Below are positions 7,661 to 22,018 of a stretch of 59,237 nucleotides of DNA, piece after piece; position 1 is the stretch's first letter; every line of letters begins with the position of its first letter. This stretch comes from a virus. The stretch lies in the IMG/VR virus record IMGVR_UViG_3300027896_000047, positions 1-59,237 of that record; one strand, 5' to 3'. Under the pieces are notes generated by a model, which was not told the DNA's origin, made no database searches, and was given only the letters and a program-made list of their open reading frames with translations. A program made the translations under genes and the position numbers.

Positions 7661-8890
7661 ATGTATACAATAAATAACCTTAATATATTTTCTGATAGTA
7701 TTGATGGTGCTACTTTGAATCAGATGCATTCAGCATTAGACCATGATTGGGTAGTTAGAGGAGTATTACTTCCTGATGCACATTTAGGATATGGCCTGCC
7801 TATCGGAGGTGTAGTTTCTACGCGAGATGTAGTGGTACCTCCTTGGGTAGGCTACGATATAGGGTGCGGTATCTGTGCTGTTAAAACCCTTTTTAAACTA
7901 GATAATATTGGTTCTGAAGAGAGCATCGCAACATTTCGTGACATATACACACTTATTACTGATACCGTCCCTTTAGGTGTAGGTGTGTATCGGAAGAAAG
8001 CAGTTATGTCATCAAGGCAGATTTATGATAAATTTGAGATTGAGTGTTCTGATTTTTTAAAGGCTCGGATGGACCAAAAAATGGCATTGCAGTTAGGGTC
8101 CCTTGGGAGCGGTAACCATTTCATCGAAATTGGGCTAGATTCAGAGAGCTACTTATGGGTAATTATACATTCAGGATCAAGAGGCTTTGGCCACGGTTGT
8201 GCCACCCATTACATGGAGTTAGCTCAACCAGACGCTGGATCAAAAGAAGGATCTTATCCATTGGATATAAACTCAGTAAACGGAAAAAATTATATTAAAG
8301 ACCTTGCGTTTATGCTTGAGTTCGCATTGATAAATAGAGAAGTCATTATGAATGACGTTCTTAATTGCGTATACAAATGTATAACTGGTGAAAATTTCCG
8401 TTCTTTTGTGTATGTTAAGGGGCGTGATTTAATAACACATCCTATTAAAAAGCAAGCGTATGATGCAACACATGATGATAGAATTACAGTGTTCATTAAC
8501 CGCAATCATAATCATGCTGAGTTAAGAGACGGTTTATGGATTCATCGTAAAGGAGCCACGCATGCTGAAGATGGCATGTTGGGTGTTATTCCGGGGAATA
8601 TGCGAGACGGTTCTTTTATTGTAAAAGGTAAAGGCAATCCTGATTCATTGTGTTCATCTTCCCATGGAGCTGGGCGTATTTTAGGACGAAAACAAGCAAA
8701 AAGAATTCTTGATGTTTTGAAGTTTGTTAACACTATGAAAGATGTTGTTTGTGGTGTTTCGAATGATCCAGGTGGTTTGTTGGATGAAGCACCTGGAGCA
8801 TACAAAGACATTTTTACAGTTATGGATGAGCAAAAGGATCTTGTTGAAGTTGTTGAGCATGTTACACCTCTGATTAATGTAAAACGATGA
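7661..8890 (+). CDS. rtcB: RtcB-family RNA ligase (3'-phosphate/cyclic phosphate to 5'-OH)
   Basis: RtcB joins RNA ends with 2',3'-cyclic phosphate or 3'-phosphate to 5'-OH ends, using GTP and Mn2+. Family signatures are present in order: LPDAHLGYGLPIGG (about 37-50), YDIGCG (about 65-70, metal-binding Asp/Cys), GSLGSGNHFIEIG (about 147), IHSGSRGFGH (about 168) and SSSHGAGR with His335, the expected guanylylated histidine. Length (409 aa) is normal and no key residue is missing. The next gene overlaps by four bases (ATGA). Nearby genes for a Thg1-like protein and a tRNA-like RNA suggest repair of tRNA or rRNA cut by host nucleases (inference). Confidence 0.96.
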   Translation: MYTINNLNIFSDSIDGATLNQMHSALDHDWVVRGVLLPDAHLGYGLPIGGVVSTRDVVVPPWVGYDIGCGICAVKTLFKLDNIGSEESIATFRDIYTLITDTVPLGVGVYRKKAVMSSRQIYDKFEIECSDFLKARMDQKMALQLGSLGSGNHFIEIGLDSESYLWVIIHSGSRGFGHGCATHYMELAQPDAGSKEGSYPLDINSVNGKNYIKDLAFMLEFALINREVIMNDVLNCVYKCITGENFRSFVYVKGRDLITHPIKKQAYDATHDDRITVFINRNHNHAELRDGLWIHRKGATHAEDGMLGVIPGNMRDGSFIVKGKGNPDSLCSSSHGAGRILGRKQAKRILDVLKFVNTMKDVVCGVSNDPGGLLDEAPGAYKDIFTVMDEQKDLVEVVEHVTPLINVKR

Positions 8891-9081
8891 GTCAGAAGTC
8901 AATATCTCTAGAAGAACTCCTTGTCCGTATGCACGACATAAGTGCCCAGCATAAGTTAAAGGAAACTGCTTTAGAAATTGCTGGGCATAACAAAAGAAGC
9001 GATGTGTATTTAGAGTTGTTGAATACCACATTAGCTGAACTCACAGCTATTATGAATTATTACACTATACATAAGGACTAA
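8887..9081 (+). CDS. Small hypothetical protein, 64 aa
   Basis: Overlaps the stop of rtcB by four bases (ATGA), so it is translationally coupled to the ligase. It is predicted all-helical (SLEELLVRMHDISAQ, then ELLNTTLAELTAIMNYY). No motif is recognised. Coupling to rtcB makes an accessory role possible, but it does not look like archease. Confidence 0.6.
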   Translation: MSQKSISLEELLVRMHDISAQHKLKETALEIAGHNKRSDVYLELLNTTLAELTAIMNYYTIHKD

Positions 9082-9082
9082 T

Positions 9083-9640
9083 ATGTACAATATATTCAAA
9101 GACACACCATACATAGTGTTAAATGCTATAGCGGTAACAAGTGTTACACTTGTAGGGAATATTCATACTGAATACCCTCTTCCGTCAGGGAACTGCTTTT
9201 CAGTACAAGTGGGTAATGGTAAACATTATCGAATTGTTAACTTTAATCATGAAAATTTGGAAGAACTGATAAGAAGAGAAGTTATTTCATTCCCAATTAA
9301 AATAATGGTGTTGTCTGATAGGGTTGCTGTGATACATGATTCTCGTATTGACCACGATTGGTATGATACTAGATTCTGTGAAGTGTGTTGCCCTAACTCT
9401 TTATTACCATTGCCTCAGTTGTTATGTTGGGATAGAGATGAACGAGATGGGACTAGGACAACCACTGAATATGAGAACGGTTCAGTTATTGTTGAGCAGA
9501 AAATCAAATCATCTAAACGCAAGTTAGAAGGCACTTGGACTATCGATGTTGCTGATTATATTCCTATAGTTGAACAAAAAGCGGGTATCACTATGGAGAC
9601 TGAATTTTCTCGAATATTGTCAGGAAAAGATAATGAGTAG
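9083..9640 (+). CDS. Hypothetical protein, 185 aa
   Basis: Starts one base after the previous stop region, within the same operon. The first half is beta-rich (YIVLNAIAVTSVTLVGNI). A Cys pair occurs at FCEVCCPNS (about residue 98) and acidic or charged strands follow. No known family is recognised and no catalytic motif is visible. Confidence 0.65.
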   Translation: MYNIFKDTPYIVLNAIAVTSVTLVGNIHTEYPLPSGNCFSVQVGNGKHYRIVNFNHENLEELIRREVISFPIKIMVLSDRVAVIHDSRIDHDWYDTRFCEVCCPNSLLPLPQLLCWDRDERDGTRTTTEYENGSVIVEQKIKSSKRKLEGTWTIDVADYIPIVEQKAGITMETEFSRILSGKDNE

Positions 9641-10016
9641 TAAAAAAGATTTAATGCTAATTTGTGCTGATATGTGGGACGAAATAGTCAGACTTCTTAG
9701 GAAAGATGCCTTAGTACACATCATTATACTAAAACAGAAAGCTTTAAACACAGTTGTTCGTAATGAAGATCTTAAAAAATCTATTCGTGAACGACTGTAT
9801 TGCCCTGCTTGTTTTATTGCCCGTGAGAACTGTAAAAAATGCCTCATGCTTGATGTTTGGGGATATAAAGAAGGAGATACAGGAGTAAGTGATTATTTGT
9901 GTTCACGCCCTAATTCTCCTTACACAATAGTAGCTGATATAAATAACGGCACAAGTAGATTATCATCAGCACAAAAAATAGCAGATGAAGCTAGGAGGAT
10001 AGCAAATATATTATGA
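9633..10016 (+). CDS. Hypothetical Cys-rich protein, 127 aa
   Basis: The start at 9633 (MSSKKDLMLICADMW) overlaps the end of the previous gene by eight bases and has AGGAAAAG upstream. A cluster YCPACFIARENCKKC with a later LCSRP is compatible with zinc binding. The N-terminal half is helical. The following gene overlaps by four bases, so the operon is tightly coupled. Function unknown. Confidence 0.65.
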   Translation: MSSKKDLMLICADMWDEIVRLLRKDALVHIIILKQKALNTVVRNEDLKKSIRERLYCPACFIARENCKKCLMLDVWGYKEGDTGVSDYLCSRPNSPYTIVADINNGTSRLSSAQKIADEARRIANIL

Positions 10017-10495
10017 AAGAGAAAATGATAATGCGTAAAGCAATAATGGATAATATTCGTAAATACACATCATTTTTAAACCCAGCACTTGTTAAACAAC
10101 AAAAACTTACTAGTAAGAATTATGCTGCTTTAGTTGAATCACACCAACTTAAAAATGTTATATTTATCATGGCAGAGAATACTGAAAATGTAGAAACTCT
10201 TAGAATGTTAGCTAAAATGTTTGATGAACTCGAATTTGAACAGCAACGTCTTTGGGGGTTTCCTTTGGATCAAAACTATCATTATTTTTGGGATTTCCCA
10301 GCTTGTACTTGTCCAAAAATAGATAATTTGGACTCATTAGGCACTTCATATCATGTACATAGTGGTGTATGCCCTATTCATGGAGAAACTGTTATGGAGA
10401 GAGTGAAAGCACGGCTTGAACAGTCCTCAAAGAAAGAAACTGAATTTGTCAAACCACAAAGAGATGCCAAGGGGCGTTTTATTAAAAATAAATAA
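10013..10495 (+). CDS. Conserved-looking hypothetical phage protein with Cys/His cluster, 160 aa
   Basis: Overlaps the previous stop (ATGA). Its centre has an unusual aromatic and Cys/His block: LWGFPLDQNYHYFWDFPACT (about 81-100), then CPKIDN and SGVCPIHGE. The CTC and CPIHG elements could hold a metal ion. I recall similar blocks in small proteins of other phages but cannot name the family. The C-terminal tail is basic (KGRFIKNK). In-frame ATGs at 10025 and 10031 are alternative starts. Confidence 0.65.
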   Translation: MKEKMIMRKAIMDNIRKYTSFLNPALVKQQKLTSKNYAALVESHQLKNVIFIMAENTENVETLRMLAKMFDELEFEQQRLWGFPLDQNYHYFWDFPACTCPKIDNLDSLGTSYHVHSGVCPIHGETVMERVKARLEQSSKKETEFVKPQRDAKGRFIKNK

Positions 10496-10502
10496 GGAAT
10501 AA

Positions 10503-10733
10503 ATGACTACATCTAATGAGTTAGTTAAAAAATTTCAAAAAAGTGCTTTAGAGGAATTACATAGTCTTATATTATATCAACAGTCTTTTCTTTTAGATTT
10601 AGAAAAAACAATTAATAAAAAAGAAGCATGTGCTTTTCCAATTTCATATGCCTCATGTGTAGTTGGAAAAGCTCTTCAAATACATAATGAACTTGCAAAA
10701 GCAAACGGTGCTGTTCTTGTACATTCAAAATAG
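10503..10733 (+). CDS. Small hypothetical protein, 76 aa
   Basis: AAGGAA precedes the ATG, seven bases after the previous stop. Predicted helical (LVKKFQKSALEELHSLILYQ). Two Cys residues occur in the middle. No family recognised. Confidence 0.55.
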   Translation: MTTSNELVKKFQKSALEELHSLILYQQSFLLDLEKTINKKEACAFPISYASCVVGKALQIHNELAKANGAVLVHSK

Positions 10734-10747
10734 TAAAGGTACTTATT

Positions 10748-11569
10748 ATGCAGGATGATTTAGGCGACAGAATGAAAATGTTCGAAAAGGCATGTGCTCC
10801 TAGATGTATGCCTCTTCTTCCAGTATGTGTTAGACTTGATGGTAAGAATTTCAGTAAGTGGACTAAAGGGTTACATCGTCCTTACGATACTGAATTTAGA
10901 ACAGTAATGATAAACGTTACTAGGTATTTAGTACAAGAAACACAAGCTTGTATAGGGTATACACAATCTGATGAAATATCATTAATTTATTACAGTGACA
11001 CGCATGCCTCTCAAATATTTTTTGATGGTAAACTTCAAAAGATTTGTTCTGTGTTAGCTTCTATGACTACGATGAAATTTAATGAATTGATGGCTGAGAA
11101 AATCATTTTGCATGATAGATTTAGGCATAAATCGTTTGCCTTGTTTGATTGTCGTGTATGGCAAGTTCCTACTTTACAGGAAGCTGTAAATGTGTTAATA
11201 TGGCGTGAGCAAGATGCTACTAAGAATAGTGTTACATTAGCTGCATCATCTGTGTATTCTCATAAGCAATTAATGAATAAAAATGGTAAACAGAAACAAG
11301 ACATGCTTATGGAGAAAGGTATTAATTGGAATGATTACCCGTGGTTCTTTAAACGAGGTGTTTATGTCAAACGTGTAATCAGAGAAAAAGAATATACAAC
11401 TGAAGAGTTGGACACATTGCCAGAAAAACACCGTTTAAATATTATAAATATGGGTGCAGTTAAAAGATCGAGTATTGAAGTACTAGAGAATTTTCCAAAA
11501 CTTGCATCCATTAAAAACGCGGTCGATGTTATTTTTAATAATGTTGAAATAAAACTAAAGGATACGTAA
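10748..11569 (+). CDS. Thg1-like protein (tRNA-His guanylyltransferase / 3'-5' polymerase family)
   Basis: Thg1-family enzymes add nucleotides to RNA 5' ends in the 3'-to-5' direction; bacterial Thg1-like proteins can repair 5'-truncated tRNAs. Signatures: VRLDGKNFSKWTKGL with Asp31, YTQSDEISL with Asp75-Glu76 (the three carboxylates of the two-metal site), FDCRVWQVP, and the C-terminal WFKRGVYVKR-like element (WFFKRGVYVKR). Length (273 aa) is usual. The start follows AAAGG. With RtcB 2 kb upstream and a tRNA-like RNA 2 kb downstream, a function in tRNA or RNA end repair is inferred. Confidence 0.92.
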   Translation: MQDDLGDRMKMFEKACAPRCMPLLPVCVRLDGKNFSKWTKGLHRPYDTEFRTVMINVTRYLVQETQACIGYTQSDEISLIYYSDTHASQIFFDGKLQKICSVLASMTTMKFNELMAEKIILHDRFRHKSFALFDCRVWQVPTLQEAVNVLIWREQDATKNSVTLAASSVYSHKQLMNKNGKQKQDMLMEKGINWNDYPWFFKRGVYVKRVIREKEYTTEELDTLPEKHRLNIINMGAVKRSSIEVLENFPKLASIKNAVDVIFNNVEIKLKDT

Positions 11570-11778
11570 TGCATCAAAAACATTTAAAAAGATTAACACC
11601 AGAGGAACATGAACGTTTATTTTTTCTTGGGGAATGTCTTATTGTTAATGGTGAATTTGTGGTGGGCTTTCATAACCAAGATCTATGGCAAGAATTTAAT
11701 ACATTGACAAAGAAGAATACCACTAAAGTCATTGTTGAAACTGGTCCTTATGATCATTACATAATGCGTAAAAAGTAA
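11569..11778 (+). CDS. Small hypothetical protein, 69 aa
   Basis: The start codon overlaps the stop of the Thg1-like gene by one base, and the stop is followed at once by the next ATG. Contains RLTPEEHERLFFLGECL, a helical segment, and a basic C-terminus. No motif recognised. The tight coupling suggests co-expression with the RNA-repair genes. Confidence 0.55.
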   Translation: MHQKHLKRLTPEEHERLFFLGECLIVNGEFVVGFHNQDLWQEFNTLTKKNTTKVIVETGPYDHYIMRKK

Positions 11779-12486
11779 ATGAGAATAGTTGTCTTTGCAG
11801 ATACTCACACTAAACATGGTACCATGAAAGTGCCTGATGGTGATGTAGTAATATGTTGTGGTGATATATGTTCAACAAGATCAATAGGGGAGGTAACCAC
11901 TTTTATTAGTTGGTTTAAAAAACTCCCTCATCGATATAAAATACTTATCGCAGGGAATCATGATTGGGGATTTCAGCAATTTAATCCTGAAGCATTAATA
12001 CCACGTGATATTTATTATTTGTGTGATTCTTATACCTATGTAAAGGAACCAAATGATTTTACAGCAACTGCTAGTGGTATAAAAGTGTATGGAACGCCTT
12101 GGACTCCTAAGTTTTTCGATTGGGCTTTTATGTTGCCTAGAAATGAAGAGCAATTAAAAGCTAGAGTCGAAGCAATACCAAATAATGTTGATATTTTAGT
12201 ATCACATGGTCCTCCTTTTGAAATTCTAGATACCGTTCCATTATATGATAAATGGGGAGGGTATCTAGCAATGCAGAATGAAGGTTGCAAAATGCTTAGA
12301 CAAAGAGTATTCGAAGTCAAACCAAAACTCCATGTTTTTGGGCACATTCACGAAGGAAGAGGGTCTGTCTTTATGAATGGGACATTGTTTGTAAATGCTA
12401 CTATTTGTAACGGTAATTATGACCCTATATATAAACCTGTTGTAATTGATTATATTAATGGAATAATGTCACTTGTGGAGGCATAA
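11779..12486 (+). CDS. Calcineurin-like metallophosphoesterase, 235 aa
   Basis: All five metal-ligand blocks are visible: ADTHTKH (Asp8, His10), GDICS (Asp29), GNHDW (Asn60, His61), SHGPP and GHIHEG. This is the two-metal calcineurin-like phosphoesterase fold. Substrate cannot be deduced; members cleave phosphomonoesters, phosphodiesters or cyclic phosphates. Position between a Thg1-like gene and a tRNA-like RNA suggests processing of RNA ends (inference). The start abuts the previous stop. Confidence 0.9.
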   Translation: MRIVVFADTHTKHGTMKVPDGDVVICCGDICSTRSIGEVTTFISWFKKLPHRYKILIAGNHDWGFQQFNPEALIPRDIYYLCDSYTYVKEPNDFTATASGIKVYGTPWTPKFFDWAFMLPRNEEQLKARVEAIPNNVDILVSHGPPFEILDTVPLYDKWGGYLAMQNEGCKMLRQRVFEVKPKLHVFGHIHEGRGSVFMNGTLFVNATICNGNYDPIYKPVVIDYINGIMSLVEA

Positions 12487-12934: not shown

Positions 12935-13693
12935 ATGGCACACATGCACGAGTTGTTGGCTGTAGAGTCAGATGTTCAAGGTCAGTTGAAATTAATTATG
13001 TCGGAAACTGACAGAGTATTCAAAGATAAATCAGCATTATTTCAGGGTTCTCATAGAAAGTTGGTTGTTTTTGATGACAATGATAAAACAGTCTATCCTG
13101 AGGAAAATCAAGCCCTAACTTCAACAGTGGAACAACGTCTCGACTATACTGCAAAGGCAATTGTTAAATGTTTTGATATAATGTTGCAGAAAGAATCAAC
13201 AAATCAAAAAGCAGTAGCAAACATTGTGGTTGATGGTGAAATTCTTGCTGAGAATGTACCTGCAACATTTCTTCTAGGTCTTGAAACTAAATTAAAAGAA
13301 GTACGATCGGTGTATGCTAACATACCTACCCTTCAAGTAGGTATTGATTGGGAAGAGGCTAGTGATCTTGGGAAGGGTATCTATCGTATGAAGTTTCCTG
13401 AAGAAAAATTACGAACTGAGTTAAAGTTCAGGTCTCAGGTACTTTATGAGGCTACTGAACACCATAAAGCAGAAATTGAGAAATGGCAGGAGCAGGTACC
13501 TACTGGTAAGTTTGTTAAGAGTGTTTGGTCAGGTATGTTCACTTCAGCTGAAAAGCATAAGGTACTCACTAATATCGACAAACTTATCTCAGCTGTAAAA
13601 CAAGCTCGTCAAAGAGCTAATATGCAAGAAGTTGTAGGGGGTAATATTGGTAAAAAACTTATTAAATTCATCAATGGTGAAGGTAGTAAGTAA
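12935..13693 (+). CDS. DUF7873-like conserved protein, 252 aa
   Basis: The protein matches, from memory, a conserved uncharacterised bacterial family (DUF7873). Typical blocks are HMHELLAVE at the N-terminus, VPATFLLGLE (about 108), YEATEHHKAE (about 170), QVPTGKF, VWSGMFTSAEKHKVLTNID (about 203) and AVKQARQRAN (about 228). No catalytic motif is evident; the protein is mostly helical. A strong AAGGAG precedes the ATG. Directly downstream lies the tRNA-like noncoding RNA, with no other gene between, so a functional link between protein and RNA is an attractive inference. Confidence 0.75.
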   Translation: MAHMHELLAVESDVQGQLKLIMSETDRVFKDKSALFQGSHRKLVVFDDNDKTVYPEENQALTSTVEQRLDYTAKAIVKCFDIMLQKESTNQKAVANIVVDGEILAENVPATFLLGLETKLKEVRSVYANIPTLQVGIDWEEASDLGKGIYRMKFPEEKLRTELKFRSQVLYEATEHHKAEIEKWQEQVPTGKFVKSVWSGMFTSAEKHKVLTNIDKLISAVKQARQRANMQEVVGGNIGKKLIKFINGEGSK

Positions 13694-13702
13694 CTATAAT
13701 TT

Positions 13703-13776
13703 TTGAGACAGCATCATTATTAATGTCAAAACCGTCTGAACCGGTATTTATTATCAAACTTATTCTTTTGTCTCAA
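13703..13776 (+). repeat. Inverted repeat enclosing a small hairpin, upstream of the tRNA-like RNA
   Basis: TTGAGACA (13703-13710) and TGTCTCAA (13769-13776) are perfect inverted repeats of eight bases. Between them ACCG/CGGT forms a small hairpin with a 7-base loop. No U-run follows, so this is not a simple terminator. It may be the 5' structured domain of the RNA that continues into the tRNA-like part, or a processing signal. Confidence 0.5.
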
Positions 13777-13798
13777 CAATTTTATTTTGAAAACTGCA

Positions 13799-14022
13799 TT
13801 ACTAGGCATTAGTAGATAAAACATTGCTTGTCAGTGGTTCGAATCCATTCTGCTCCTCTATGTACATAAAAATATACCTTATGTACATAGAGGAGCAGTA
13901 GCTCAGTGGTAGAGCAGGCTTTATAAATCTAACATCTGTTAATTGACTGAAAATGTAAGTGAGTAAACAAAACTATACAAGCAGAGGGGTTTCGGAAGGA
14001 TATCTGGAACCCCTCATTTTTT
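13799..14022 (+). ncRNA. Circularly permuted tRNA-like (Y RNA/YrlA-like) noncoding RNA
   Basis: The T arm comes first: stem AGTGG (13833-13837), loop TTCGAAT, stem CCATT (13845-13849). CTGCTCC, the 3' acceptor strand (13850-13856), follows without CCA. Next is a linker that extends the helix to 20 bp and closes with a 9-base loop (13870-13878). Then come GGAGCAG, the 5' acceptor strand (13892-13898), TA, and a D arm GCTC-AGTGGTA-GAGC (13901-13915). The halves are thus in reverse order to a normal tRNA gene and joined at the acceptor end. The flanks pair weakly where an anticodon stem would be (AGGC with GCTT, TTTAT with ATAAA). A small hairpin (13799-13815) precedes it and a terminator (13984-14022) ends it. 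This is the layout of the tRNA-like module of bacterial YrlA Y RNAs; a permuted tRNA gene is the alternative. Confidence 0.8.
13984..14022 (+). terminator. Rho-independent terminator of the tRNA-like RNA
   Basis: GAGGGGTTTC (13984-13993) pairs with GGAACCCCTC (14006-14015), 10 bp with one G-U pair and a 12-base loop, followed by ATTTTTTATT. It fixes the 3' end and the plus-strand direction of the noncoding RNA. Confidence 0.88.
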
Positions 14023-14035
14023 ATTAAAATATTTA

Positions 14036-14145: not shown

Positions 14146-15060
14146 ATGGGTGAACGTCCTGTCACATCTCTAAGTGTGATTATTGCTCGTATTCAAGTAG
14201 ACGATCTACATGAAGGTCATTTAGAGCTATTTCAAGAAGCTTTCAATAATAGTACAACGATGCTTGTTATTATTGGGTTAAGTCCTTGTAAATGTACAAG
14301 GAACAATCCTCTTGATTTTAGCACTCGTTGTAGTCTTGTCCTTTCTCATTTCCCTAAAGCTAAAGTTGCCTATATTGAAGATATAGGTGATAATATTAAA
14401 TGGTCAAAAAAGCTTGATACTATTATTAAGCCTTTTGCCGATAAGCATGATACCACTATACTTTATGGGAGTCGTGATTCTTTCATTAAATCATATCATG
14501 GTACATACCTCACCAAAAATATAATGCAAAAGGTCATTATTTCTGGAACTGTTATAAGGAATCAAATAGCTGCCCGTTCTAGAGATACAGTTGATTTCAG
14601 AGCTGGGGCTATTTGGTATGCTCTTAATCAATATCCAAGAGTAGTTCCAACAGTTGATATTGCTGTTATAGATAAATCTTCAGAATTGCTTCTTTTAGGT
14701 CGTAAACCACATGAAGATTTGTATAGATTAGTTGGGGGTTTTGCAGAACCTGGTGAGACCTTTGAAGCCTCAGCTGTTCGTGAATTGCAGGAAGAAACAG
14801 GTCTTCGTGTTAAACCAGGGCAATTACATATTGAAAGATCATTTTTTATTGATGATTGGCGTTATAAGAATGAGGTTGATAAAATAACTACTGTTTTATT
14901 TACATTGTCTACATATAGTGGTCTGCCTATTCCAAATGATGATATATGTGAATTAAAATGGTTTAATATGTATACTGAGCTTACTTTAGATATAGTGATG
15001 CCAAATCATAGAGATATGATTGCTTATCTTATTAAAAAATATTGTCCGGATCGAGTATGA
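14146..15060 (+). CDS. nadM: Bifunctional NMN/NaMN adenylyltransferase-Nudix hydrolase
   Basis: The N-terminal domain (1 to about 160) is a nucleotidyltransferase fold with HEGH at 22-25 (HxGH motif) and ISGTVIR at 132-138 (ISxTxxR motif), the two ATP-binding signatures of NMN adenylyltransferases. The C-terminal domain (about 168-304) is a Nudix hydrolase with a full Nudix box at 198-220 (Gly198, Glu204, Arg212-Glu213, EE at 216-217). The same fusion occurs in bacterial NadM-Nudix proteins, which make NAD from NMN and hydrolyse ADP-ribose. It can supply the third step of the NAD route encoded nearby and remove ADP-ribose left by NADases (inference). GGAGG precedes the ATG. Confidence 0.92.
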   Translation: MGERPVTSLSVIIARIQVDDLHEGHLELFQEAFNNSTTMLVIIGLSPCKCTRNNPLDFSTRCSLVLSHFPKAKVAYIEDIGDNIKWSKKLDTIIKPFADKHDTTILYGSRDSFIKSYHGTYLTKNIMQKVIISGTVIRNQIAARSRDTVDFRAGAIWYALNQYPRVVPTVDIAVIDKSSELLLLGRKPHEDLYRLVGGFAEPGETFEASAVRELQEETGLRVKPGQLHIERSFFIDDWRYKNEVDKITTVLFTLSTYSGLPIPNDDICELKWFNMYTELTLDIVMPNHRDMIAYLIKKYCPDRV

Positions 15061-15350
15061 TAAATATTTTAAAGAAAATCGGAAATGCATTAATATTTCT
15101 AGGTATTTTAGGGGTTTTAGTAGTTATCGCTGGAGCTTTTGTTAAACGTTCTGATGACTATAATAAGAAACTTAAAGAGGAAAGTATACACTCAGCTATG
15201 TTTGATTGTGAAAGCAAACAACCATTCTCTACTGACTTAAATTTGCAACAATATGAAATTCGGAAGTGCAAAACAAAGAAAGGTAATGTTGAGTACCTGT
15301 TATTAACTACTCCAAATGGTGATGGTAGTCTTATGGAGTTTCATGAATAA
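15057..15350 (+). CDS. Small single-pass membrane protein, 97 aa
   Basis: Overlaps the previous stop by four bases (ATGA). Residues about 10-32 (ALIFLGILGVLVVIAGAFV) form one transmembrane helix, with the C-terminus probably periplasmic. Two Cys residues (FDCESKQ, IRKCKTK) could form a disulphide. The next gene, a lipoprotein, starts inside its end. The overlapped membrane protein/lipoprotein pair resembles spanins in layout, but the protein lacks a coiled coil, so that assignment is weak. Confidence 0.6.
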   Translation: MINILKKIGNALIFLGILGVLVVIAGAFVKRSDDYNKKLKEESIHSAMFDCESKQPFSTDLNLQQYEIRKCKTKKGNVEYLLLTTPNGDGSLMEFHE

Positions 15351-15558
15351 ATTTGTATTTTTATGTTTCTTATTTGTAAGTAGTTGTGCTAATAATCAAG
15401 ACGATGCCCCACAGCGAAGACAAGAACATAATCTTACATGTGGACCAGCACTACCAATATATGAAATGACTACTATTGAAATTAAGATGTGTACAACGTT
15501 AACTAATACCAAGGAACCAGATAGTTTATACATTGTAATACAAGGATCATTAAAATAA
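15343..15558 (+). CDS. Small putative lipoprotein, 71 aa
   Basis: The start at 15343 follows TGGAG. A hydrophobic signal (MNKFVFLCFLFVSSC) ends in a lipobox-like VSSC, giving Cys15 as the lipidated residue. The mature part has two further Cys residues. Its C-terminal strand (EIKMCTTL) resembles EIRKCKTK in the preceding protein, hinting at related periplasmic folds. It could be an outer-membrane or surface protein; superinfection exclusion is one possibility, unproven. Confidence 0.6.
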   Translation: MNKFVFLCFLFVSSCANNQDDAPQRRQEHNLTCGPALPIYEMTTIEIKMCTTLTNTKEPDSLYIVIQGSLK

Positions 15559-15572
15559 AGTGTATTTTTATC

Positions 15573-15601
15573 TTGTATTACTTCTACGAATAGTGTATAG
15601 T
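15573..15601 (+). promoter_or_regulatory. Promoter, TTGTAT-N17-TATAGT
   Basis: TTGTAT at 15573-15578, a 17-base spacer ending GTG, and TATAGT at 15596-15601. It lies 55 bases before the nicotinamidase gene and could drive the pncA-vWA part of the operon. Confidence 0.55.
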
Positions 15602-15655
15602 GTTTTACATAAGTGTTAGTTGTTAATTTAAAAACAAAAAGAAAAGGAGATTGTT

Positions 15656-16477
15656 ATGGACGTAAGATTGTTAATTATTGACCCACAGGTAGATTTTTGT
15701 GATCCAAAAGGTGCTTTGTATGTTGGAGTGCCTTCCGACCCCTCAACAGGAGCGGTGGCTGATTGCACTCGCACTGCTAAGATGATTGACCGTTTAGGCA
15801 AAAAAATTACTCGTATTTATACGACTTTTGACAGCCATTCTCAGTATCAGATTTTTCATCCAATGTTCTGGAAGAAGAGTGACAGCAACATCGTCGATCC
15901 TTTTACACTTATTAAATATTCGGATATTGTCGACGGTGTGTATACTCCAGTAGACCCACATATGCTGGATTGGGCTAAAAGCTATGCTAAAACTCTGGAG
16001 GATGGAGGTCGTTATCCTTTGTTCATTTGGCCTTACCATTGTTTAATTGGTACCCCAGGTTGGGCTATGAATCCTGAAATCATGCAATCCATTCATAAGT
16101 GGGAGCGTGATACATATCGTAGTTTCCGTCCAATTACCAAGGGTTCTTGTTTTAAAACTGAACATTATTCTGCAGTTAAGGCAGAAGTTGAAGTTCCGGA
16201 AGACCCTACCACTCAGTTGAACATGAAGGGCCTCATTGTACCTCTCGAGGAAGCTGATATGGTGCTCATCGGTGGACAGGCCCGCAGTCATTGTGTTGCA
16301 AATACAGTTAGGGATATTATGGCTAATTTTTCCGATCCTGCATATATTAGAAAAATGTATATCCTTGAAGATGCTACATCTGATGTTCCTGGATTCGAAC
16401 ATCTTGGTGATGCATTTATCAATGACTTCGTGCAGGCTGGTGGGAACATCACCACTACTGTTAAAGTTCTCGCGTAA
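15656..16477 (+). CDS. pncA: Nicotinamidase (isochorismatase-like hydrolase)
   Basis: Nicotinamidase converts nicotinamide to nicotinate. The family triad is visible: Asp9 in LIIDPQVDFC, Lys162 in PITKGSCF and Cys213 in GGQARSHCVANTVRD. A metal site is suggested by FDSHSQYQIFHP (DxH plus a second His), and WPYHCLIGTPGW matches the WPxHC block of PncA. At 273 aa it is longer than E. coli PncA, with insertions around 80-120 and 180-200. Placement beside pncB and nadE supports nicotinamide as substrate, but another isochorismatase-type amide cannot be excluded. AAAGGAG precedes the ATG. Confidence 0.85.
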   Translation: MDVRLLIIDPQVDFCDPKGALYVGVPSDPSTGAVADCTRTAKMIDRLGKKITRIYTTFDSHSQYQIFHPMFWKKSDSNIVDPFTLIKYSDIVDGVYTPVDPHMLDWAKSYAKTLEDGGRYPLFIWPYHCLIGTPGWAMNPEIMQSIHKWERDTYRSFRPITKGSCFKTEHYSAVKAEVEVPEDPTTQLNMKGLIVPLEEADMVLIGGQARSHCVANTVRDIMANFSDPAYIRKMYILEDATSDVPGFEHLGDAFINDFVQAGGNITTTVKVLA

Positions 16478-16513
16478 ATTCAATTTTAATCTACTAGTTA
16501 AGGAGTACATATT

Positions 16514-17263
16514 ATGGAAGAGACAAAATTCGAAATCCCCGATAATAATGCCTTCAGTTTTTCAGGTATCGATCCGGAAGACCTCGTTAATCCTGAAGAC
16601 GAGTACACTTTGGTATCAATTGCTGAAGATGTAAGTCCTTCTACAGGGGGTTGTCGGGTTGCTATGGCAGCAGGAATGAAAACTGTTAATCTCGCTTGTA
16701 AGAAAGATCCACGTTCCGACAAACTCATGGTACATTCTACCAGGTTTGGTGCTTCTATCCAGGAAATTCATGGCTTTAAACCTGTGAATGATATTGATGA
16801 AAATCTGTATTCTGCCTCTCCTAGTATTGGAGGATCTACTTGTTTGTATGATGCAATTTATAATGCAGTATCTGCATGTAGTCGGTATGCTGAAATTCTT
16901 GATAAATCTGGCGATATCAGTTCCAATGCTATTGTTTTTATATTCACTGATGGTATGGATAATTCGTCAACAGTTGGACCACAGACTATTATGGAAAAAC
17001 TGGAGGAAATCAAGATGAAGGAAGTATTGGAGTCCATCAAGATCATCATCCTGGGCTTTAGTGATCCTAATTCTTCTTACCAATCAACTGTCGCCAAGTA
17101 TTTGCAGCAATTAGTTGACGATCTCAAACTTGACCAGTATGTAGACATTGGAGCAATGACTCCTGCTCAAGCTGCAAAGGTCTTCGGATTTGTCAGTCAG
17201 TCCATTTCTTCTCAGAGTCAGCATCTCGGAACAGGTGGTGCAAGTCAAAATCTCGTATTTTAA
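16514..17263 (+). CDS. TerY-like von Willebrand factor A domain protein
   Basis: The 249-residue protein is essentially one vWA domain with an intact MIDAS metal site: DVSPS (DxSxS), Thr in GGSTCLYDAIYNAV, and Asp in IFTDGMDNSS. Such domains bind partners through a divalent cation. It is followed directly by PP2C and kinase genes; this is the vWA-phosphatase-kinase triad known from TerY-type tellurite/stress systems. It lacks the HEAT-like TROVE ring of Ro60, so it is not an Ro protein although Ro60 also has a vWA domain. The gene starts after AAGGAG and ends at a strong hairpin. Confidence 0.85.
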   Translation: MEETKFEIPDNNAFSFSGIDPEDLVNPEDEYTLVSIAEDVSPSTGGCRVAMAAGMKTVNLACKKDPRSDKLMVHSTRFGASIQEIHGFKPVNDIDENLYSASPSIGGSTCLYDAIYNAVSACSRYAEILDKSGDISSNAIVFIFTDGMDNSSTVGPQTIMEKLEEIKMKEVLESIKIIILGFSDPNSSYQSTVAKYLQQLVDDLKLDQYVDIGAMTPAQAAKVFGFVSQSISSQSQHLGTGGASQNLVF

Positions 17264-17286
17264 TTCGCTTTTATTAACAACACTAA

Positions 17287-17325
17287 TGATTAGAGTGGTG
17301 ATGTAACCACTCTAATCATTTTCTT
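17287..17325 (+). terminator. Hairpin/terminator between vWA and PP2C genes
   Basis: A perfect 13-bp stem (TGATTAGAGTGGT at 17287-17299 with 17306-17318) with a 6-base loop, followed by TTTTCTT. It may lower expression of the downstream phosphatase and kinase relative to the vWA protein, since no new promoter is evident before 17343. Confidence 0.75.
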
Positions 17326-17342
17326 CTATTTTGGTAGGCACT

Positions 17343-18239
17343 ATGAATGTTGATAATTTTTTAAAAATTGGGCATAGTCACACCATGTGCCAGGATTATA
17401 TTTTGTCTGGAACAGATCCCATACCTTATGTTATTCTGGCAGATGGTTGTTCGTCAGCAGCTGATAGTGACATAGGTGCTCGTTTGTTATGTCATACTGC
17501 TTTATCCTATTTAATTGAAAATTTAAAATATTTAGAGCAAGTAGATTGGTTCAGTTTAGGAACTACTATTGTCACCGATGCAGTACATGCTAAACGGAGC
17601 TATTTCAGTACATTGTCTGTAGAATGTCTGGATGCTACACTTATTGTAGCTTATAAATATAATAAGAGATATAAAGTGTTTATATATGGTGATGGTCATG
17701 TATATTATACTACACCTGATAATACACAATGTTATTATAAAGTTAATTTTACACCAAACGCCCCAGCTTATTTACGTTATTGGATTAACGGTAAACAACA
17801 GTATATTGATAATAAAGTACAGATGTCAGTTACTTCACATAATTGGATTAATGGTGCTAATTTTCTTGACGCGTTTACACCTTTTTTTCTTGACATACCA
17901 GAAGAGGAAATTAAAACTCTTATTGTAGCGAGTGATGGAGTTGAATCACTAATGTTTAAAGAAGAGGAATTAGTAAAAACAAAGTATCTAAAAATGTATG
18001 ATCTTATCAAGTACGCTAGGCAACATCCAACAATTACAGATGTTAAATGTATAGAATCTCAGTTAGTTCCTCAAGTTAAAGAACTTGCTTTTCTTGATTT
18101 ATTTAAAGATATGATAGAATTCAAGTTAACTAAAGGTCCCTTTCTTAGTCGTCGTGTTAAAAAAGTGCTTAAAGAACATCAGAAGAATGGTTTTGTTAAC
18201 GATGATGATCTATCCATCGGTTGTTTTTTGGAGGATTAA
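17343..18239 (+). CDS. PP2C-family protein phosphatase
   Basis: Motifs of PP2C Ser/Thr phosphatases are present: HTMCQDYIL (metal Asp), LADGCSSAADSDIGARL, LDATLIVAY, YGDGHVYYT, VASDGVESL and DDLSIGCFL (final metal Asp). ATG at 17343 is used; an upstream TTG is in frame but without support. Length (298 aa) suits a single PP2C domain. It presumably reverses phosphorylation by the kinase encoded three bases downstream, with the vWA protein as partner or substrate (inference from the triad). Confidence 0.88.
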   Translation: MNVDNFLKIGHSHTMCQDYILSGTDPIPYVILADGCSSAADSDIGARLLCHTALSYLIENLKYLEQVDWFSLGTTIVTDAVHAKRSYFSTLSVECLDATLIVAYKYNKRYKVFIYGDGHVYYTTPDNTQCYYKVNFTPNAPAYLRYWINGKQQYIDNKVQMSVTSHNWINGANFLDAFTPFFLDIPEEEIKTLIVASDGVESLMFKEEELVKTKYLKMYDLIKYARQHPTITDVKCIESQLVPQVKELAFLDLFKDMIEFKLTKGPFLSRRVKKVLKEHQKNGFVNDDDLSIGCFLED

Positions 18240-18242
18240 ATC

Positions 18243-19943
18243 ATGAAATATACTGTCCAAGGTAAAGGTACCGTTACACTTGTAGGTTCTGACTTCATGG
18301 CGTCTGGAGGAGAAGCACAGATCTTTAAAAAAGGCGGCTCCGTCTATAAAATATATCACAATCCTTCTGATATGATTCCTGACGGGAAGATTCAGGAATT
18401 ACAGCAAATAAAACGAAATAATGTCTTGATTCCAAAGGATATTATTCTGGACAGTAAAGGAAGCCGTGTTGGTTTTACAATGGACTATACACCTAATGTT
18501 GCTCCTTTGTGCAAGTTGTTCACAAATACGTATATAGAACAAAATGATATCTCAAATAACACTATAATTGATCTTGTGAAATACATGCAGGAAACAATTG
18601 AGGAGATTCATGCTGCTGCTTGTATTCAGGTTGACGGGAATGAATTGAACTACCTTGTTGACGAGAAGACACATAAAAATTGCTATTTTATTGATGTTAA
18701 CTCCTACCAAACAAAGTCATTCCCAGCTACCGTCATTATGCCTTCTGTACGTGACTGGACTGCCACTTCTTTTAATGAGTTAACTGATTGGTATTCTTTT
18801 GCAACAATTGCCTGCCAGTTGTTTATTGGCATCCATCCATATAAAGGAAAACATCCAGATTTCAAAAAATTCGACATTGAAAACAGAATGAAAGCACATG
18901 TGTCTGTTTTCAATAAGCAGACACAATTACCCAAGTCTGTAAGGGACTTTAGTAGAATCCCTTCCAATTACATGGATTGGTTTATCGATGTGTTAGAAAA
19001 AGGCAAACGTTTAGCCCCTCCATCTACAGTAGGGAAAGTTGATGCTAAAATCACTTATACAATTGTCGTTTCTACTGATAACTTTGATATTAAAGAGATC
19101 GATGTATTTGATGATACTGTGTTGTATCATTCTAATGCAAACAACATTCCTATAACTAGAACTAAGAAATCTGTCTATATTGGTTCGAATTCATACAGAG
19201 TTAGAAAAGGTACTTATTTAGTTCATACACCAAAAAAGTTAATGCCTGTATTGGTTGCAGTACAAGATGGTACATTATCTGTAAAATCACTTAGTAATCA
19301 TTTTGACGTTAAGGTAGGATCTACTATTAATGCTGAAGAATTAATAGTTATTAATAATACTGTGTATGTAAGAAGTGGCGGTAATTTACTTGAAACCTAT
19401 TTTCTTGAAAATAGCACCTCTGCTACATTAGTCACTAAAAATGTTTGGAGTATACACGAGAATTCTAGTACTTTTTTCAAGAACATGATAGTTCAAGATT
19501 TACTTGGATCTAAATACATTTCAATTCCTGTACCCAATATTAAAGATAGCGTTTTCCATAATATACGTTGTGCTGTTCTTGATAATTACAAAGTGTTAGA
19601 CGCTAAATACGAGGGTGGTATTTGTGTATTGTCGGTTTCACATGTTAAGGACAATGCTTATGGGTTAATCGTAATAACAGATTTTAAGGATGTTGAAAAT
19701 TCTAACAGATTTATTGCAACAGATGACTATAATCAAGTGAATTTTGTTGCATTGGATAACGGAATCGTGTTATTATTGCATGAAGATACTTTAGAAATAT
19801 TCAGTACTGCAAAAGCCTCTAAAGTTAAAATGATAAAGGATAAGCAATTAAGTACTGATATGATATTATGTAAAAGAGGAGCATCTGTGCGGTTCTTTAC
19901 AGATAATAAATTGTATAGTATCGCAATGAAACAATCCAAATGA
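18243..19943 (+). CDS. Protein kinase-like protein with C-terminal beta-rich domain
   Basis: Residues about 15-270 are kinase-like: glycine loop MASGGEAQIF, Lys36 in VYKIYH, catalytic-loop Asp131 and Asn136 in VDGNELNYL, metal Asp151 in FIDVNSY, and DWYSFATIACQLFIGIHPY as the C-lobe helix. The usual HRD and DFG forms are altered but the charged residues remain, so activity is likely. Residues about 290-566 consist of repeated beta strands (for example NNTVYVRSGGNLLETYF) resembling a beta-propeller sensor. The usual zinc ribbon of TerY-linked kinases is absent. It lies three bases after the PP2C gene. Confidence 0.8.
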   Translation: MKYTVQGKGTVTLVGSDFMASGGEAQIFKKGGSVYKIYHNPSDMIPDGKIQELQQIKRNNVLIPKDIILDSKGSRVGFTMDYTPNVAPLCKLFTNTYIEQNDISNNTIIDLVKYMQETIEEIHAAACIQVDGNELNYLVDEKTHKNCYFIDVNSYQTKSFPATVIMPSVRDWTATSFNELTDWYSFATIACQLFIGIHPYKGKHPDFKKFDIENRMKAHVSVFNKQTQLPKSVRDFSRIPSNYMDWFIDVLEKGKRLAPPSTVGKVDAKITYTIVVSTDNFDIKEIDVFDDTVLYHSNANNIPITRTKKSVYIGSNSYRVRKGTYLVHTPKKLMPVLVAVQDGTLSVKSLSNHFDVKVGSTINAEELIVINNTVYVRSGGNLLETYFLENSTSATLVTKNVWSIHENSSTFFKNMIVQDLLGSKYISIPVPNIKDSVFHNIRCAVLDNYKVLDAKYEGGICVLSVSHVKDNAYGLIVITDFKDVENSNRFIATDDYNQVNFVALDNGIVLLLHEDTLEIFSTAKASKVKMIKDKQLSTDMILCKRGASVRFFTDNKLYSIAMKQSK

Positions 19944-19956
19944 TACGAGGTTTATT

Positions 19957-21159
19957 ATGGGTTTACTAAGAACTACGAACATTATACGGTCGTTAGCAGA
20001 TACCGATCTGTACAAGCTGACAATGATGCAGGTTGTATTTGAAAAATACATGAATGTATCTGTTCAATATGATTTCAAATGTCGTAATATTAAGATACTG
20101 GATACAGTATTTGATAAAGAAGCATTTGTTAAATCAGTAAATAGAGAGATCGATAATTTTTGCTCTTTACGATTTACTGATGATGAACTACAGTACCTTT
20201 CTACTCTTAGATTTTTTAAACCAGGTTTTATTGAATTTCTTCGTATGTTTCGACTAAATAGAAGTCATACGAAAGTATATCTCAAAAATAACGATCTTGC
20301 AATTTCGGTGAAAGGGCCCTGGTTTGCTACCATTCCGGTAGAAGTGCCTGTGCTTGCTATTGTGAGTGAATTATATTCTGGTCAACGTATTGACGGTGAA
20401 ATGGTTGATGTACAATCGATGCTCAAAGAGCTATTAAGGTACAAAATTCAATATATCAATAATAATGTGCCTATAGAGGCAATGCCATCGTTGTTTATCA
20501 ACGATATGGGCACTAGGAGAAGATATTCTTACGAAGCTCAGAAGTATGTGTTAGAGACTATGGTAGAACATGGTTTATTAAGCGGCACTTCTAATATACA
20601 CTTTGCACAAATGTTTGGCATTAAAGCAATGGGAACGATGGCACATGAGTATATCTGTGCTCATCAGCAGTTAGCAAGAGTTGAGGATTGTCAAAAAGCT
20701 GCTTTTCAAGCATGGGCTGAAGTATATAGAGGTGATTTAGGTATTGCTTTGTCTGACACAGTTGGTTTTGCTGCTTTTCTTAGGGATTTTGATTTGTACT
20801 TTGCTAAGTTGTTTGATGGTGCTCGTCATGATTCAGGTGATCCATATGAGTGGTGTAATAAGTTAATTGAGCATTACAACAAACTCACTATTGATCCTAG
20901 AACGAAGATAGCAGTTTTTAGTGATGGGCTTAAATTCCCTACTATGGTTGAATTGTTTCTTGCGTTTTATAAAAGAATTAAAGTATCTTTTGGTATAGGT
21001 ACTGATTTAACCAATGATGTAGGGTTGTTAGCTTTGCAAATAGTTATGAAAATGGTTGAATGTAATGGTAGACCAGTAGCTAAAGTGGCTGATACTGTTG
21101 GAAAAGGTATGTGTCTTGATGCCGGTTTTGAAACTTATATCAAAAATATTTTTAATTAG
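19957..21159 (+). CDS. pncB: Nicotinate phosphoribosyltransferase
   Basis: PncB joins nicotinate to PRPP to form nicotinate mononucleotide. At 400 residues it has exactly the length of E. coli PncB and the same blocks: LADTDLYKLTMMQ at the N-terminus, KGPWFATIPVEVPVLA, MGTRRRYSYEAQ, GTSNIHFAQMFGIKAMGT, AHEYICAHQQ, RHDSGDPYEW, VFSDGLKFPT, SFGIGTDLTND and VECNGRPVAKVADT. The motifs are those of PncB rather than NAMPT, so the phage route goes through nicotinate. It is in one operon with nadE, 10 bases downstream. Confidence 0.95.
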   Translation: MGLLRTTNIIRSLADTDLYKLTMMQVVFEKYMNVSVQYDFKCRNIKILDTVFDKEAFVKSVNREIDNFCSLRFTDDELQYLSTLRFFKPGFIEFLRMFRLNRSHTKVYLKNNDLAISVKGPWFATIPVEVPVLAIVSELYSGQRIDGEMVDVQSMLKELLRYKIQYINNNVPIEAMPSLFINDMGTRRRYSYEAQKYVLETMVEHGLLSGTSNIHFAQMFGIKAMGTMAHEYICAHQQLARVEDCQKAAFQAWAEVYRGDLGIALSDTVGFAAFLRDFDLYFAKLFDGARHDSGDPYEWCNKLIEHYNKLTIDPRTKIAVFSDGLKFPTMVELFLAFYKRIKVSFGIGTDLTNDVGLLALQIVMKMVECNGRPVAKVADTVGKGMCLDAGFETYIKNIFN

Positions 21160-21169
21160 GAGCTAGAAC

Positions 21170-22018
21170 ATGAAATACTATTTATTTAATAGGCACGATA
21201 TGCCTCCTGTTATAGAAGGGATTGTAAATAATACATGTGCGTATTTAGTTAAATACCCAAATATAGAATCTTTTGTTTTTGGACTTTCCGGTGGCGCTGA
21301 TAGTGCTTTAGTTTGTGCTTTAGCTGTCAATGTCAGAACACGTATGAAAAATTCTTTTAATAGAGATATTAAAATTATTGCGAGAAGCCTCCCTATATTA
21401 ACTAATAAGCAGGATGAAATTGATAGAGCTGCTGCTGTTGGGAATGCATTTGATATTGATTTTGATACCTTTGACCTAAGTGTTATGTATAAAAGGGTAA
21501 CAGATTGTCTTAATGAAATGTTTGATGGTACTAATGCAGTACGATTAGGAAATATTAAAGCACGTTTACGGATGATTTATTTGTATAATTTAGCACATAG
21601 AAATAAGGGGCTTGTTTTATCAACTGATAATTACACAGAGCTTCTTTTAGGTTTTTGGACACTACATGGTGATGTAGGTGACCTTGGGATGATTCAAAAT
21701 CTTTGGAAAACTGAAGTTTTTATGCTATTAGATTATTATGCATGTAATGTGTATCAGTTACCAGGGGAGGGTAAAATTAGTAGTGCTTTAAAAGCATGTA
21801 GAGATGCGATTCCAACTGATGGGTTAGGAGTATCTGAATCTGACTATGCTCAGTTTGGTAATGCTACTACATATGAAGAGGTCGATCAGATTTTCATCAA
21901 TGCTTTAAACAGTGGATATACAAATACCATCAAGAAAGGTGGTGAAGTTCCTAAAGTGCTGACTATGTATGAAAATAGTATGTATAAGAGAGAGAATCCT
22001 TATAATATCCCAAGATAA
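21170..22018 (+). CDS. nadE: NH3-dependent NAD+ synthetase
   Basis: NadE amidates nicotinate adenine dinucleotide to NAD+. The PP-loop SGGADS is at 40-45. GNIKARLRMIYLYNLAH, STDNYTELLLGFW and GDVGDLGMIQNLWKTEVF are typical NadE blocks. At 282 residues without a glutaminase domain it should use ammonia. Residues IPTDGLGVSESDYAQFG match the C-terminal acceptor loop. Together with pncA, pncB and the adenylyltransferase it completes the deamidating NAD salvage pathway. GGAGC precedes the ATG. Confidence 0.94.
   Translation: MKYYLFNRHDMPPVIEGIVNNTCAYLVKYPNIESFVFGLSGGADSALVCALAVNVRTRMKNSFNRDIKIIARSLPILTNKQDEIDRAAAVGNAFDIDFDTFDLSVMYKRVTDCLNEMFDGTNAVRLGNIKARLRMIYLYNLAHRNKGLVLSTDNYTELLLGFWTLHGDVGDLGMIQNLWKTEVFMLLDYYACNVYQLPGEGKISSALKACRDAIPTDGLGVSESDYAQFGNATTYEEVDQIFINALNSGYTNTIKKGGEVPKVLTMYENSMYKRENPYNIPR

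What the first reader, a model, noticed from the sequence alone, without database searches (positions are those of the whole stretch)
13799..14022. Permuted tRNA-like noncoding RNA next to RNA-repair genes
Seen: a T arm, 3' acceptor strand, closed loop, 5' acceptor strand and D arm in this order, the reverse of a tRNA gene. The seven acceptor pairs are perfect and continue to a 20-bp helix. The D arm and T loop have consensus tRNA bases, and a terminator fixes the 3' end. Known: YrlA Y RNAs of bacteria use this tRNA-mimic layout and occur near ro60/rsr and rtcB genes, also in some phages. No Ro60 gene is in the window, so either its partner is another protein (the DUF7873-like one is adjacent), or the locus is a permuted tRNA needing ligation, with RtcB and Thg1 as possible processing enzymes.
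Basis: partly seen in the sequence, partly recalled or inferred. Interest (0 to 1): 0.92.

Follow-up and report, generated by a model that had tools for sequence, protein, structure and literature searches.

The report
Phage permuted tRNA-mimic RNA with DUF7873
The stretch encodes a real, folded non-coding RNA that imitates a tRNA with its two halves swapped, and in about a hundred phage genomes it sits directly behind one gene for a protein of unknown function (DUF7873), which points to an undescribed phage RNA-protein partnership resembling the bacterial Y RNA/Ro60 system but without Ro60.

Summary
T arm, 3' acceptor, closed 20-bp helix, 5' acceptor and D arm lie at 13833-13915 in permuted order, ending in an intrinsic terminator (13984-14015). 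Chance does not explain it (strict module: 0 in 150 shuffles).

Right behind the DUF7873 gene, on the same strand, a permuted tRNA module is found in 91/96 viral contigs, 13/15 further phage loci and 13/24 bacterial loci, and never on the opposite strand. A reverse search with RNA motifs led back to DUF7873 in 4 of 5 contigs.

The RNA (about 315 nt) has a 5' hairpin, a 10-bp lower helix, an anticodon-like stem without a loop, the tRNA core with a conserved N-C-C-A after the acceptor, and a 3' hairpin with loop [ACT]GGNNA. Many relatives add an anticodon arm or whole cloverleaf. Covariation is overwhelming.

Ro60 (TROVE) and RtcB are missing from most records, so neither is the obligate partner. 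The layout is YrlA-like, but Y RNA membership is not met. DUF7873 folds confidently (pLDDT 91) without a known structural relative.

Best reading: a Y-RNA-like tRNA-mimic RNP with DUF7873 in Ro60's place. Function as decoy or tether is inferred.

The parts
12935..13693 (+). DUF7873 gene (252 aa), proposed protein partner of the RNA
   Evidence: Pfam PF25283 E 2.8e-67; 79-sequence alignment A4; AF2 model pLDDT 90.6; genetic linkage
13703..13776 (+). 5' hairpin domain, closing helix TTGAGACA 13703-13710 / TGTCTCAA 13769-13776
   Evidence: seen in the sequence; an equivalent helix before the A[AG]NTTTA motif is supported across 69 loci, z=7.4; weaker than the other helices, and earlier looser tests were negative
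13778..13785 (+). AATTTTAT, window version of the conserved AGCTTTAG / AAACTTA motif
   Evidence: k-mer enrichment in the 5' region of relatives; assignment in the window by position
13808..13817 (+). lower helix, 5' strand ATTAGTAGAT
   Evidence: pairs with 13934-13943; covaries in relatives (helix 1: 10/10 pairs with double changes, 66.5% of cells paired)
13826..13829 (+). anticodon-like stem, 3' strand GCTT (pairs AGGC 13916-13919)
   Evidence: unselected stem, z=14.5 over 132 modules; helix 2
13833..13849 (+). T arm, loop TTCGAAT
13850..13856 (+). 3' acceptor strand CTGCTCC
   Evidence: helix 4, 99.9% paired, 7/7 pairs with double changes
13857..13860 (+). T-CTA, window version of the conserved N73-C-[CT]-A (tRNA 3'-end mimic)
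   Evidence: C74 98%, C75 77%, A76 87% in 97 CM-aligned relatives
13857..13891 (+). acceptor extension: 13 more base pairs closing a 9-nt loop
13892..13898 (+). 5' acceptor strand GGAGCAG
13901..13915 (+). D arm GCTC-AGTGGTA-GAGC
13916..13919 (+). anticodon-like stem, 5' strand AGGC
13920..13933 (+). internal-loop strand; family consensus has conserved T, A, T and A positions (UNA...UNA pattern)
   Evidence: consensus from A8: T88, A89, T81, A84 per cent
13934..13943 (+). lower helix, 3' strand ATCTGTTAAT
13984..14022 (+). 3' terminal hairpin and intrinsic terminator, apical loop AGGATA 13997-14002, then U tract
   Evidence: the loop [ACT]GGNNA with a long stem occurs in 75 of 103 relatives
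13806..13944 (+). match to covariance model R1 of the DUF7873-associated RNA
   Evidence: 84.4 bits, E 4.5e-24; the window is one of the 44 training sequences

Best explanation
The locus makes a non-coding RNA of roughly 315 nt, possibly released from the 3' part of the DUF7873 transcript. It belongs to a conserved phage RNA family that travels with the DUF7873 gene. It works like the bacterial Y RNA YrlA: a lower helix carries a circularly permuted tRNA core (T arm, acceptor, D arm), and the place of the anticodon loop is opened into that helix. Shown: the RNA anatomy, its covariation, the conserved N-CCA and 3' hairpin loop, the constant neighbourhood with DUF7873, and the usual absence of Ro60. 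Inferred: DUF7873 binds the RNA (probably the non-tRNA parts: lower helix, 5' motif region or 3' hairpin), taking the place of Ro60, and the RNP presents the tRNA mimic to tRNA-binding factors of the infected cell. The most likely purpose is to occupy or redirect such a factor, either a tRNA-cutting or tRNA-modifying defence enzyme or a processing nuclease such as PNPase. The cloverleaf or anticodon arm that many relatives add fits a tRNA decoy.
For: Linkage: module within about 50-700 nt behind DUF7873 on the same strand in 91/96 viral, 13/15 phage and 13/24 bacterial loci, 0 on the opposite strand. Four of 5 contigs found with sequence patterns of the RNA carry DUF7873 directly upstream (three of them contigs already known); the fifth is an ordinary tRNA array. 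Structure: covariation score 0.665 against 0.210 shuffled on MAFFT alignment A6 and 0.822 against 0.215 on 97 CM-fitted sequences, with every slid register far lower. The anticodon-like stem was not used to pick the sequences: at least 4/5 pairs in 111/132 modules against 36.5 expected. tRNA-mimic details: T loop UUCRA, D-loop GG and C74 98%, C75 77%, A76 87%. 43/75 have a hairpin with a 7-nt loop between module and 3' hairpin, against 5-15 for any other loop size, with U33 in 36. 3' hairpin loop [ACT]GGNNA in 75/103. TROVE absent from 45/50 viral records and 14/15 further records. DUF7873 has no Pfam enzyme domain and no fold match. For YrlA itself the review PMC8394870 describes a basal stem bound by Rsr and a tRNA-like domain that binds PNPase; PMC7790460 proposes that the tRNA-like domain could inhibit an anticodon nuclease.
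Against: No binding or expression data. DUF7873 is not notably basic (mean pI 6.9). The window lacks the extra anticodon arm or cloverleaf (34-nt spacer) and has T-CTA instead of N-CCA. About half of the chromosomal Bacteroidota homologues lack the RNA, so DUF7873 can exist without it. No sigma-70 promoter pattern lies in front of the RNA, so it could be only a 3' UTR element. No single function is pinned down.
Confidence: 0.66

Rival explanations
1. A true Y RNA (YrlA) that binds a Ro60 protein supplied by the host or by a missing part of the phage genome; DUF7873 is an unrelated neighbour.
For: Same topology; full-length sub-threshold YrlA match. When a TROVE gene is present it lies within 8 kb of DUF7873 in 5 of 6 genomes, and Rhizobium phage Y65 has four more permuted modules in front of its TROVE gene.
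Against: TROVE missing from 14 of 15 records including complete phage genomes and from 45 of 50 viral records. The RNA follows DUF7873, not TROVE. The model of the DUF7873-linked RNA scores the TROVE-side modules of Y65 at 53 bits or less against 80.6 for the DUF7873-side one. The internal loop of the 3' strand is longer than in YrlA.
Confidence: 0.12
2. A permuted tRNA gene: RNase P and 3' processing open the acceptor loop at G1 and N-CCA, and the two halves act as a two-piece tRNA or are joined at the anticodon loop by RtcB.
For: N-C-C-A strongly conserved after the acceptor; anticodon-like stem conserved; RtcB and Thg1 in the window; two-piece permuted tmRNA is a known precedent (own knowledge).
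Against: No conserved anticodon or acceptor identity; the anticodon loop is replaced by an internal loop on a 10-bp helix. RtcB in only 7 of 50 records. Position 1 is G in only 87/133. In the window the acceptor runs unbroken into a 13-bp extension with no CCA.
Confidence: 0.1
3. A cis-acting 3' UTR element: DUF7873 or a tRNA-binding host protein binds the tRNA-like end of the DUF7873 mRNA and controls its stability or translation.
For: Always downstream on the same strand and close; no promoter pattern between gene and RNA; terminator at the end.
Against: Size, multidomain build and duplicated modules are more than a control element usually needs; some loci have 470-680 nt between gene and module.
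Confidence: 0.1

Closest known systems
YrlA / bacterial Y RNA with Ro60 (Rsr), Rfam RF02553
   Same: Permuted order T arm - acceptor - D arm on a lower helix; anticodon-like short stem; D- and T-loop consensus; seen with RNA-repair genes in some genomes
   Different: Partner gene is DUF7873, not Ro60; N-CCA in the acceptor loop; longer internal loop; 5' motif region and [ACT]GGNNA 3' hairpin; many members add an anticodon arm or cloverleaf; Rfam score 31-40 bits against gathering 69
Two-piece (permuted) tmRNA, RF04321/RF01851
   Same: Permuted tRNA-like domain in which the 3' acceptor part is encoded first, with CCA
   Different: Only 12-14 bits; full D arm; no tag reading frame identified (not searched for specifically)
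Permuted tRNA genes of algae and archaea
   Same: 3' half encoded before the 5' half
   Different: No conserved decoding anticodon; ends lie in a lower helix rather than at a splice site; acceptor closed in the window
Plant-virus tRNA-like structures
   Same: Viral RNA imitating tRNA
   Different: Those are genomic 3' ends of RNA viruses; here a separate DNA-phage locus with a partner gene (comparison from own knowledge)

Membership tests
YrlA / bacterial Y RNA | Permuted tRNA-like domain (T arm, acceptor, D arm) on a lower stem | tested here: met
YrlA / bacterial Y RNA | Score above the Rfam gathering cut-off of RF02553 (69 bits) | tested here: not met
   31.4 bits in the window, 32.5-39.7 in relatives; the TROVE-side phage modules of Y65 also fail, so the cut-off is strict
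YrlA / bacterial Y RNA | Encoded with and bound by a Ro60/Rsr (TROVE) protein | tested here: not met
   no TROVE in the window, in 14/15 and 45/50 records; binding not testable; the window is an incomplete contig
YrlA / bacterial Y RNA | Ro60-binding motif in the lower stem | tested here: inconclusive
   a lower helix exists, but its internal loop differs from the YrlA consensus; the motif itself was not scored separately
Permuted (split) tRNA gene | Both halves of an anticodon loop with a decoding anticodon | tested here: not met
   anticodon stem present, loop replaced by internal loop and helix, no conserved triplet
Permuted (split) tRNA gene | Processed ends, aminoacylation or splicing | not testable with these tools
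   no RNA data
tmRNA (permuted) | Rfam match above gathering score | tested here: not met
   12-13.8 bits, below the gathering scores of 47 and 70
RAGATH-7 (RF03159) | Match above gathering score in family members | tested here: not met
   30 bits in the window but no match over the cut-off in 50 relatives

The most novel reading that the evidence does not exclude
A previously undescribed phage RNP: a multidomain tRNA-mimic RNA (permuted core with N-CCA, often with a second anticodon arm or whole cloverleaf, and a [ACT]GGNNA hairpin) bound by DUF7873, a fold without known relatives, that acts as a decoy or tether to neutralise host tRNA-targeting defence during infection.
Probability: 0.3. Interest if true: 0.95.

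Novelty: new variant of a known kind. Interest (0 to 1): 0.86.

Why it matters
Permuted tRNA mimics were known as Y RNAs of Ro60. A widespread second system with a different, structurally novel partner protein would show that this RNA topology evolved or was re-used outside Ro60. It would give DUF7873 a first functional assignment, and offer culturable phages in which the open question of what the tRNA-like end of Y RNAs is for can be tested. No paper in the library names DUF7873 or, in the searches made, reports permuted tRNA-like RNAs with such a partner in phages; the library omits most subscription journals.

Tried and rejected
Direct DNA similarity to phage records: only ordinary tRNA D arms and weak A/T-rich matches. 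RtcB/Thg1 as obligate partners: RtcB rejected by co-occurrence; Thg1 co-occurrence not searched. RAGATH-7: rejected. Ordinary tRNA: rejected by ARAGORN and by topology. Chance: rejected. PDB sequence search with the DUF7873 profile: no match; Foldseek PDB and viral: nothing at E<=0.001, top hits with TM 0.1-0.2. A helix for the 5' domain failed in loose tests (plus a mis-specified run) and passed only when anchored on the motif, so it is given less weight. An alignment of all 16 phage DUF7873 proteins was too diverse for pattern search and was split into two groups.

Full report
Observation. The sequence shows T arm 13833-13849, 3' acceptor 13850-13856, a hairpin, 5' acceptor 13892-13898 and D arm 13901-13915. 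The whole acceptor helix is 20 perfect base pairs. A terminator with U tract closes the unit at 13984-14022. The fold energy of 13800-14025 is 7.6 standard deviations below shuffles. ARAGORN reports no tRNA. Rfam reports nothing at its gathering scores; at lower threshold YrlA is the best-scoring family, aligned over its full length at 31.4 bits. A scanner for this topology gives one top-scoring hit in the window, against 0.027 per shuffled window, and none of 150 shuffles gives a hit with strict criteria.

The neighbouring gene. The ORF 12935-13693 just upstream is DUF7873 (PF25283, E 2.8e-67). A relative from a viral contig (L001, 46% identity) has a YrlA-like match about 190 nt behind its DUF7873 gene. 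Translated search found 70 phage records with DUF7873 in phages of Rhizobium, Vibrio, Klebsiella/Serratia, Gordonia, Rhodococcus and cyanobacteria. I fetched representatives and then 100 viral and 26 bacterial loci.

A conserved pair. A scanner for the permuted module finds it on the same strand within 700 nt behind the DUF7873 stop codon in 91 of 96 viral loci, 13 of 15 phage loci (L001 among those it misses) and 13 of 24 bacterial loci, and in none on the opposite strand; 8 viral loci also have a module in the kilobase upstream. The covariance model R1 adds several that the scanner missed, for example L001, L054, L058 and L091 (the L091 hit lies 1.5 kb downstream). The reverse test used only sequence motifs of the RNA against 2.9 million viral contigs. 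Five contigs matched; four have DUF7873 directly upstream (three of these were already known, one was new), and the fifth is an array of ordinary tRNAs. About half of the chromosomal Bacteroidota homologues lack the RNA; others have it with acceptor loops of 115-170 nt.

RNA anatomy. On 44 sequences aligned by MAFFT the structure covaries with a score of 0.665 against 0.210 +/- 0.012 for shuffles, and collapses when slid by one column. On 97 CM-fitted sequences it is 0.822 against 0.215 (this alignment leans towards the model). Acceptor, T and D stems were used for selection, so their near-100% pairing is partly built in, but all seven acceptor pairs show many double changes. The anticodon-like stem was not used for selection and is still strongly supported (z 14.5; 111/132 with at least 4 of 5 pairs, 36.5 expected). 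A lower helix of about 10 bp starts some 15 nt before the T arm and 18 nt after the D arm; in the window it is ATTAGTAGAT/ATCTGTTAAT. The strand between D arm and lower helix has conserved U, A, U and A positions, and the loop after the 3' acceptor begins N-C-C-A (C74 98%, C75 77%, A76 87%). The 3' end is a hairpin, mostly of 11-14 bp, with apical loop [ACT]GGNNA in 75 of 103 loci. In 47 of 106 loci ARAGORN calls a collinear tRNA downstream of the module, in about 30 of them between core and 3' hairpin; many of these lack CCA and have unusual anticodons. Of 75 loci, 43 have a hairpin with a 7-nt loop in that interval, 36 of them with U at position 33 (some of these are T arms of the collinear element). 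In some, such as L043, L063, L117 and L118, an anticodon arm stands alone. The window has neither. Many phages carry two permuted modules about 150 nt apart. The 5' region is enriched in AGCTTTAG/AAACTTA-type motifs and has a closing helix supported at z 7.4 when anchored on that motif.

Partners. TROVE is missing from the window, from 14 of 15 further records and from 45 of 50 viral records. Where TROVE exists it lies within about 8 kb of DUF7873 in five of six genomes (L002, L038, L052, L054, L117; positions). RtcB occurs in 7 of 50. So neither is the regular partner, and DUF7873 is the only gene seen in constant company with the RNA.

The protein. The AlphaFold2 model from 79 sequences is confident (pLDDT 90.6, pTM 0.80), a mix of long helices and long beta hairpins. 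There is no PDB sequence relative and no significant fold match in the PDB or viral libraries. Invariant or nearly invariant residues include N90, P109, L113, E117, W139, K222, R225, A228 and N229. No enzyme family matches. The protein is near neutral in charge, so RNA binding is not obvious from charge alone.

Mechanism. By layout the RNA works like YrlA. In YrlA the basal stem is bound by Rsr/Ro60 and the tRNA-like domain binds PNPase (PMC8394870); a role of the tRNA-like domain as competitor of an anticodon nuclease has been proposed (PMC7790460). I infer that DUF7873 takes Ro60's place and that the tRNA mimic engages a host tRNA-binding factor. The conserved N-CCA, the tRNA-type D/T loop residues and the added anticodon arms suit an RNA that must pass for a tRNA without decoding. 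The window neighbourhood, with RNA ligase, Thg1 and NAD-salvage genes, fits phage repair and counter-defence functions, but this is context only.

Membership. It should not be filed as a Y RNA: the defining Ro60 partner was looked for and is generally not there, and the family score is not reached. It does work like one in topology. It is not RAGATH-7, tmRNA or an ordinary permuted tRNA gene.

Limits. No expression or binding data were available. The window is an incomplete contig. Relatedness of sequences inflates shuffle-based significance; the slid-register control and the unselected anticodon stem are the safer evidence. The window was one of 44 training sequences of R1, so its R1 score is not independent; the YrlA match and the shuffle test are. 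The paper library omits most subscription journals, so novelty is judged on open papers and on Rfam and Pfam.

Noticed in passing
window 14146-22018: An apparent NAD+ salvage set: Nudix protein with an N-terminal nucleotidyltransferase-like match (14146-15060), weak isochorismatase/nicotinamidase-like ORF (15656-16477), nicotinate phosphoribosyltransferase (19957-21159) and NAD synthase (21170-22018). It may serve NAD reconstitution against NAD-depleting defence.
   Followed up: partly
window 16514-19943: PP2C phosphatase (17331-18239) between two ORFs that read by eye like a VWA-type protein and a protein-kinase-like protein; only the PP2C has a Pfam match.
   Followed up: no
window 7661-12486: RtcB, Thg1-like and a metallophosphoesterase gene lie close together, a possible tRNA-repair cluster.
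   Followed up: partly
L002 13237-14041: Rhizobium phage RHph_Y65 has four permuted tRNA modules directly in front of its TROVE (Ro60) gene, besides the DUF7873-linked one: two permuted-RNA systems in one phage.
   Followed up: partly
L052, L038, L054, L117, L002: When a TROVE gene is present it lies within about 8 kb of DUF7873 in five of six genomes.
   Followed up: partly
L003 9103-9176, L020 6367-6438, L041 5998-6069 and about 25 more: A collinear tRNA-like cloverleaf, often without CCA and with unusual anticodons or Ser anticodon without long arm, sits between the permuted module and the 3' hairpin. Standard pipelines annotate these as tRNA genes.
   Followed up: partly
L148 200-1000: A phage array of tRNA genes that each seem to hold an insert with a repeated motif (TTAATCTGACAAGATTACGTTCAGCA-like) near the anticodon arm; possibly tRNA introns.
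   Followed up: no
L121-L123, L125, L131, L132, L135-L138, L140: Chromosomal Bacteroidota DUF7873 homologues without a detectable permuted RNA: either loss or a role of the protein without the RNA.
   Followed up: partly
L123 5900-6200: The sequence behind one Bacteroidota DUF7873 gene reads by eye like a cobalamin riboswitch.
   Followed up: no
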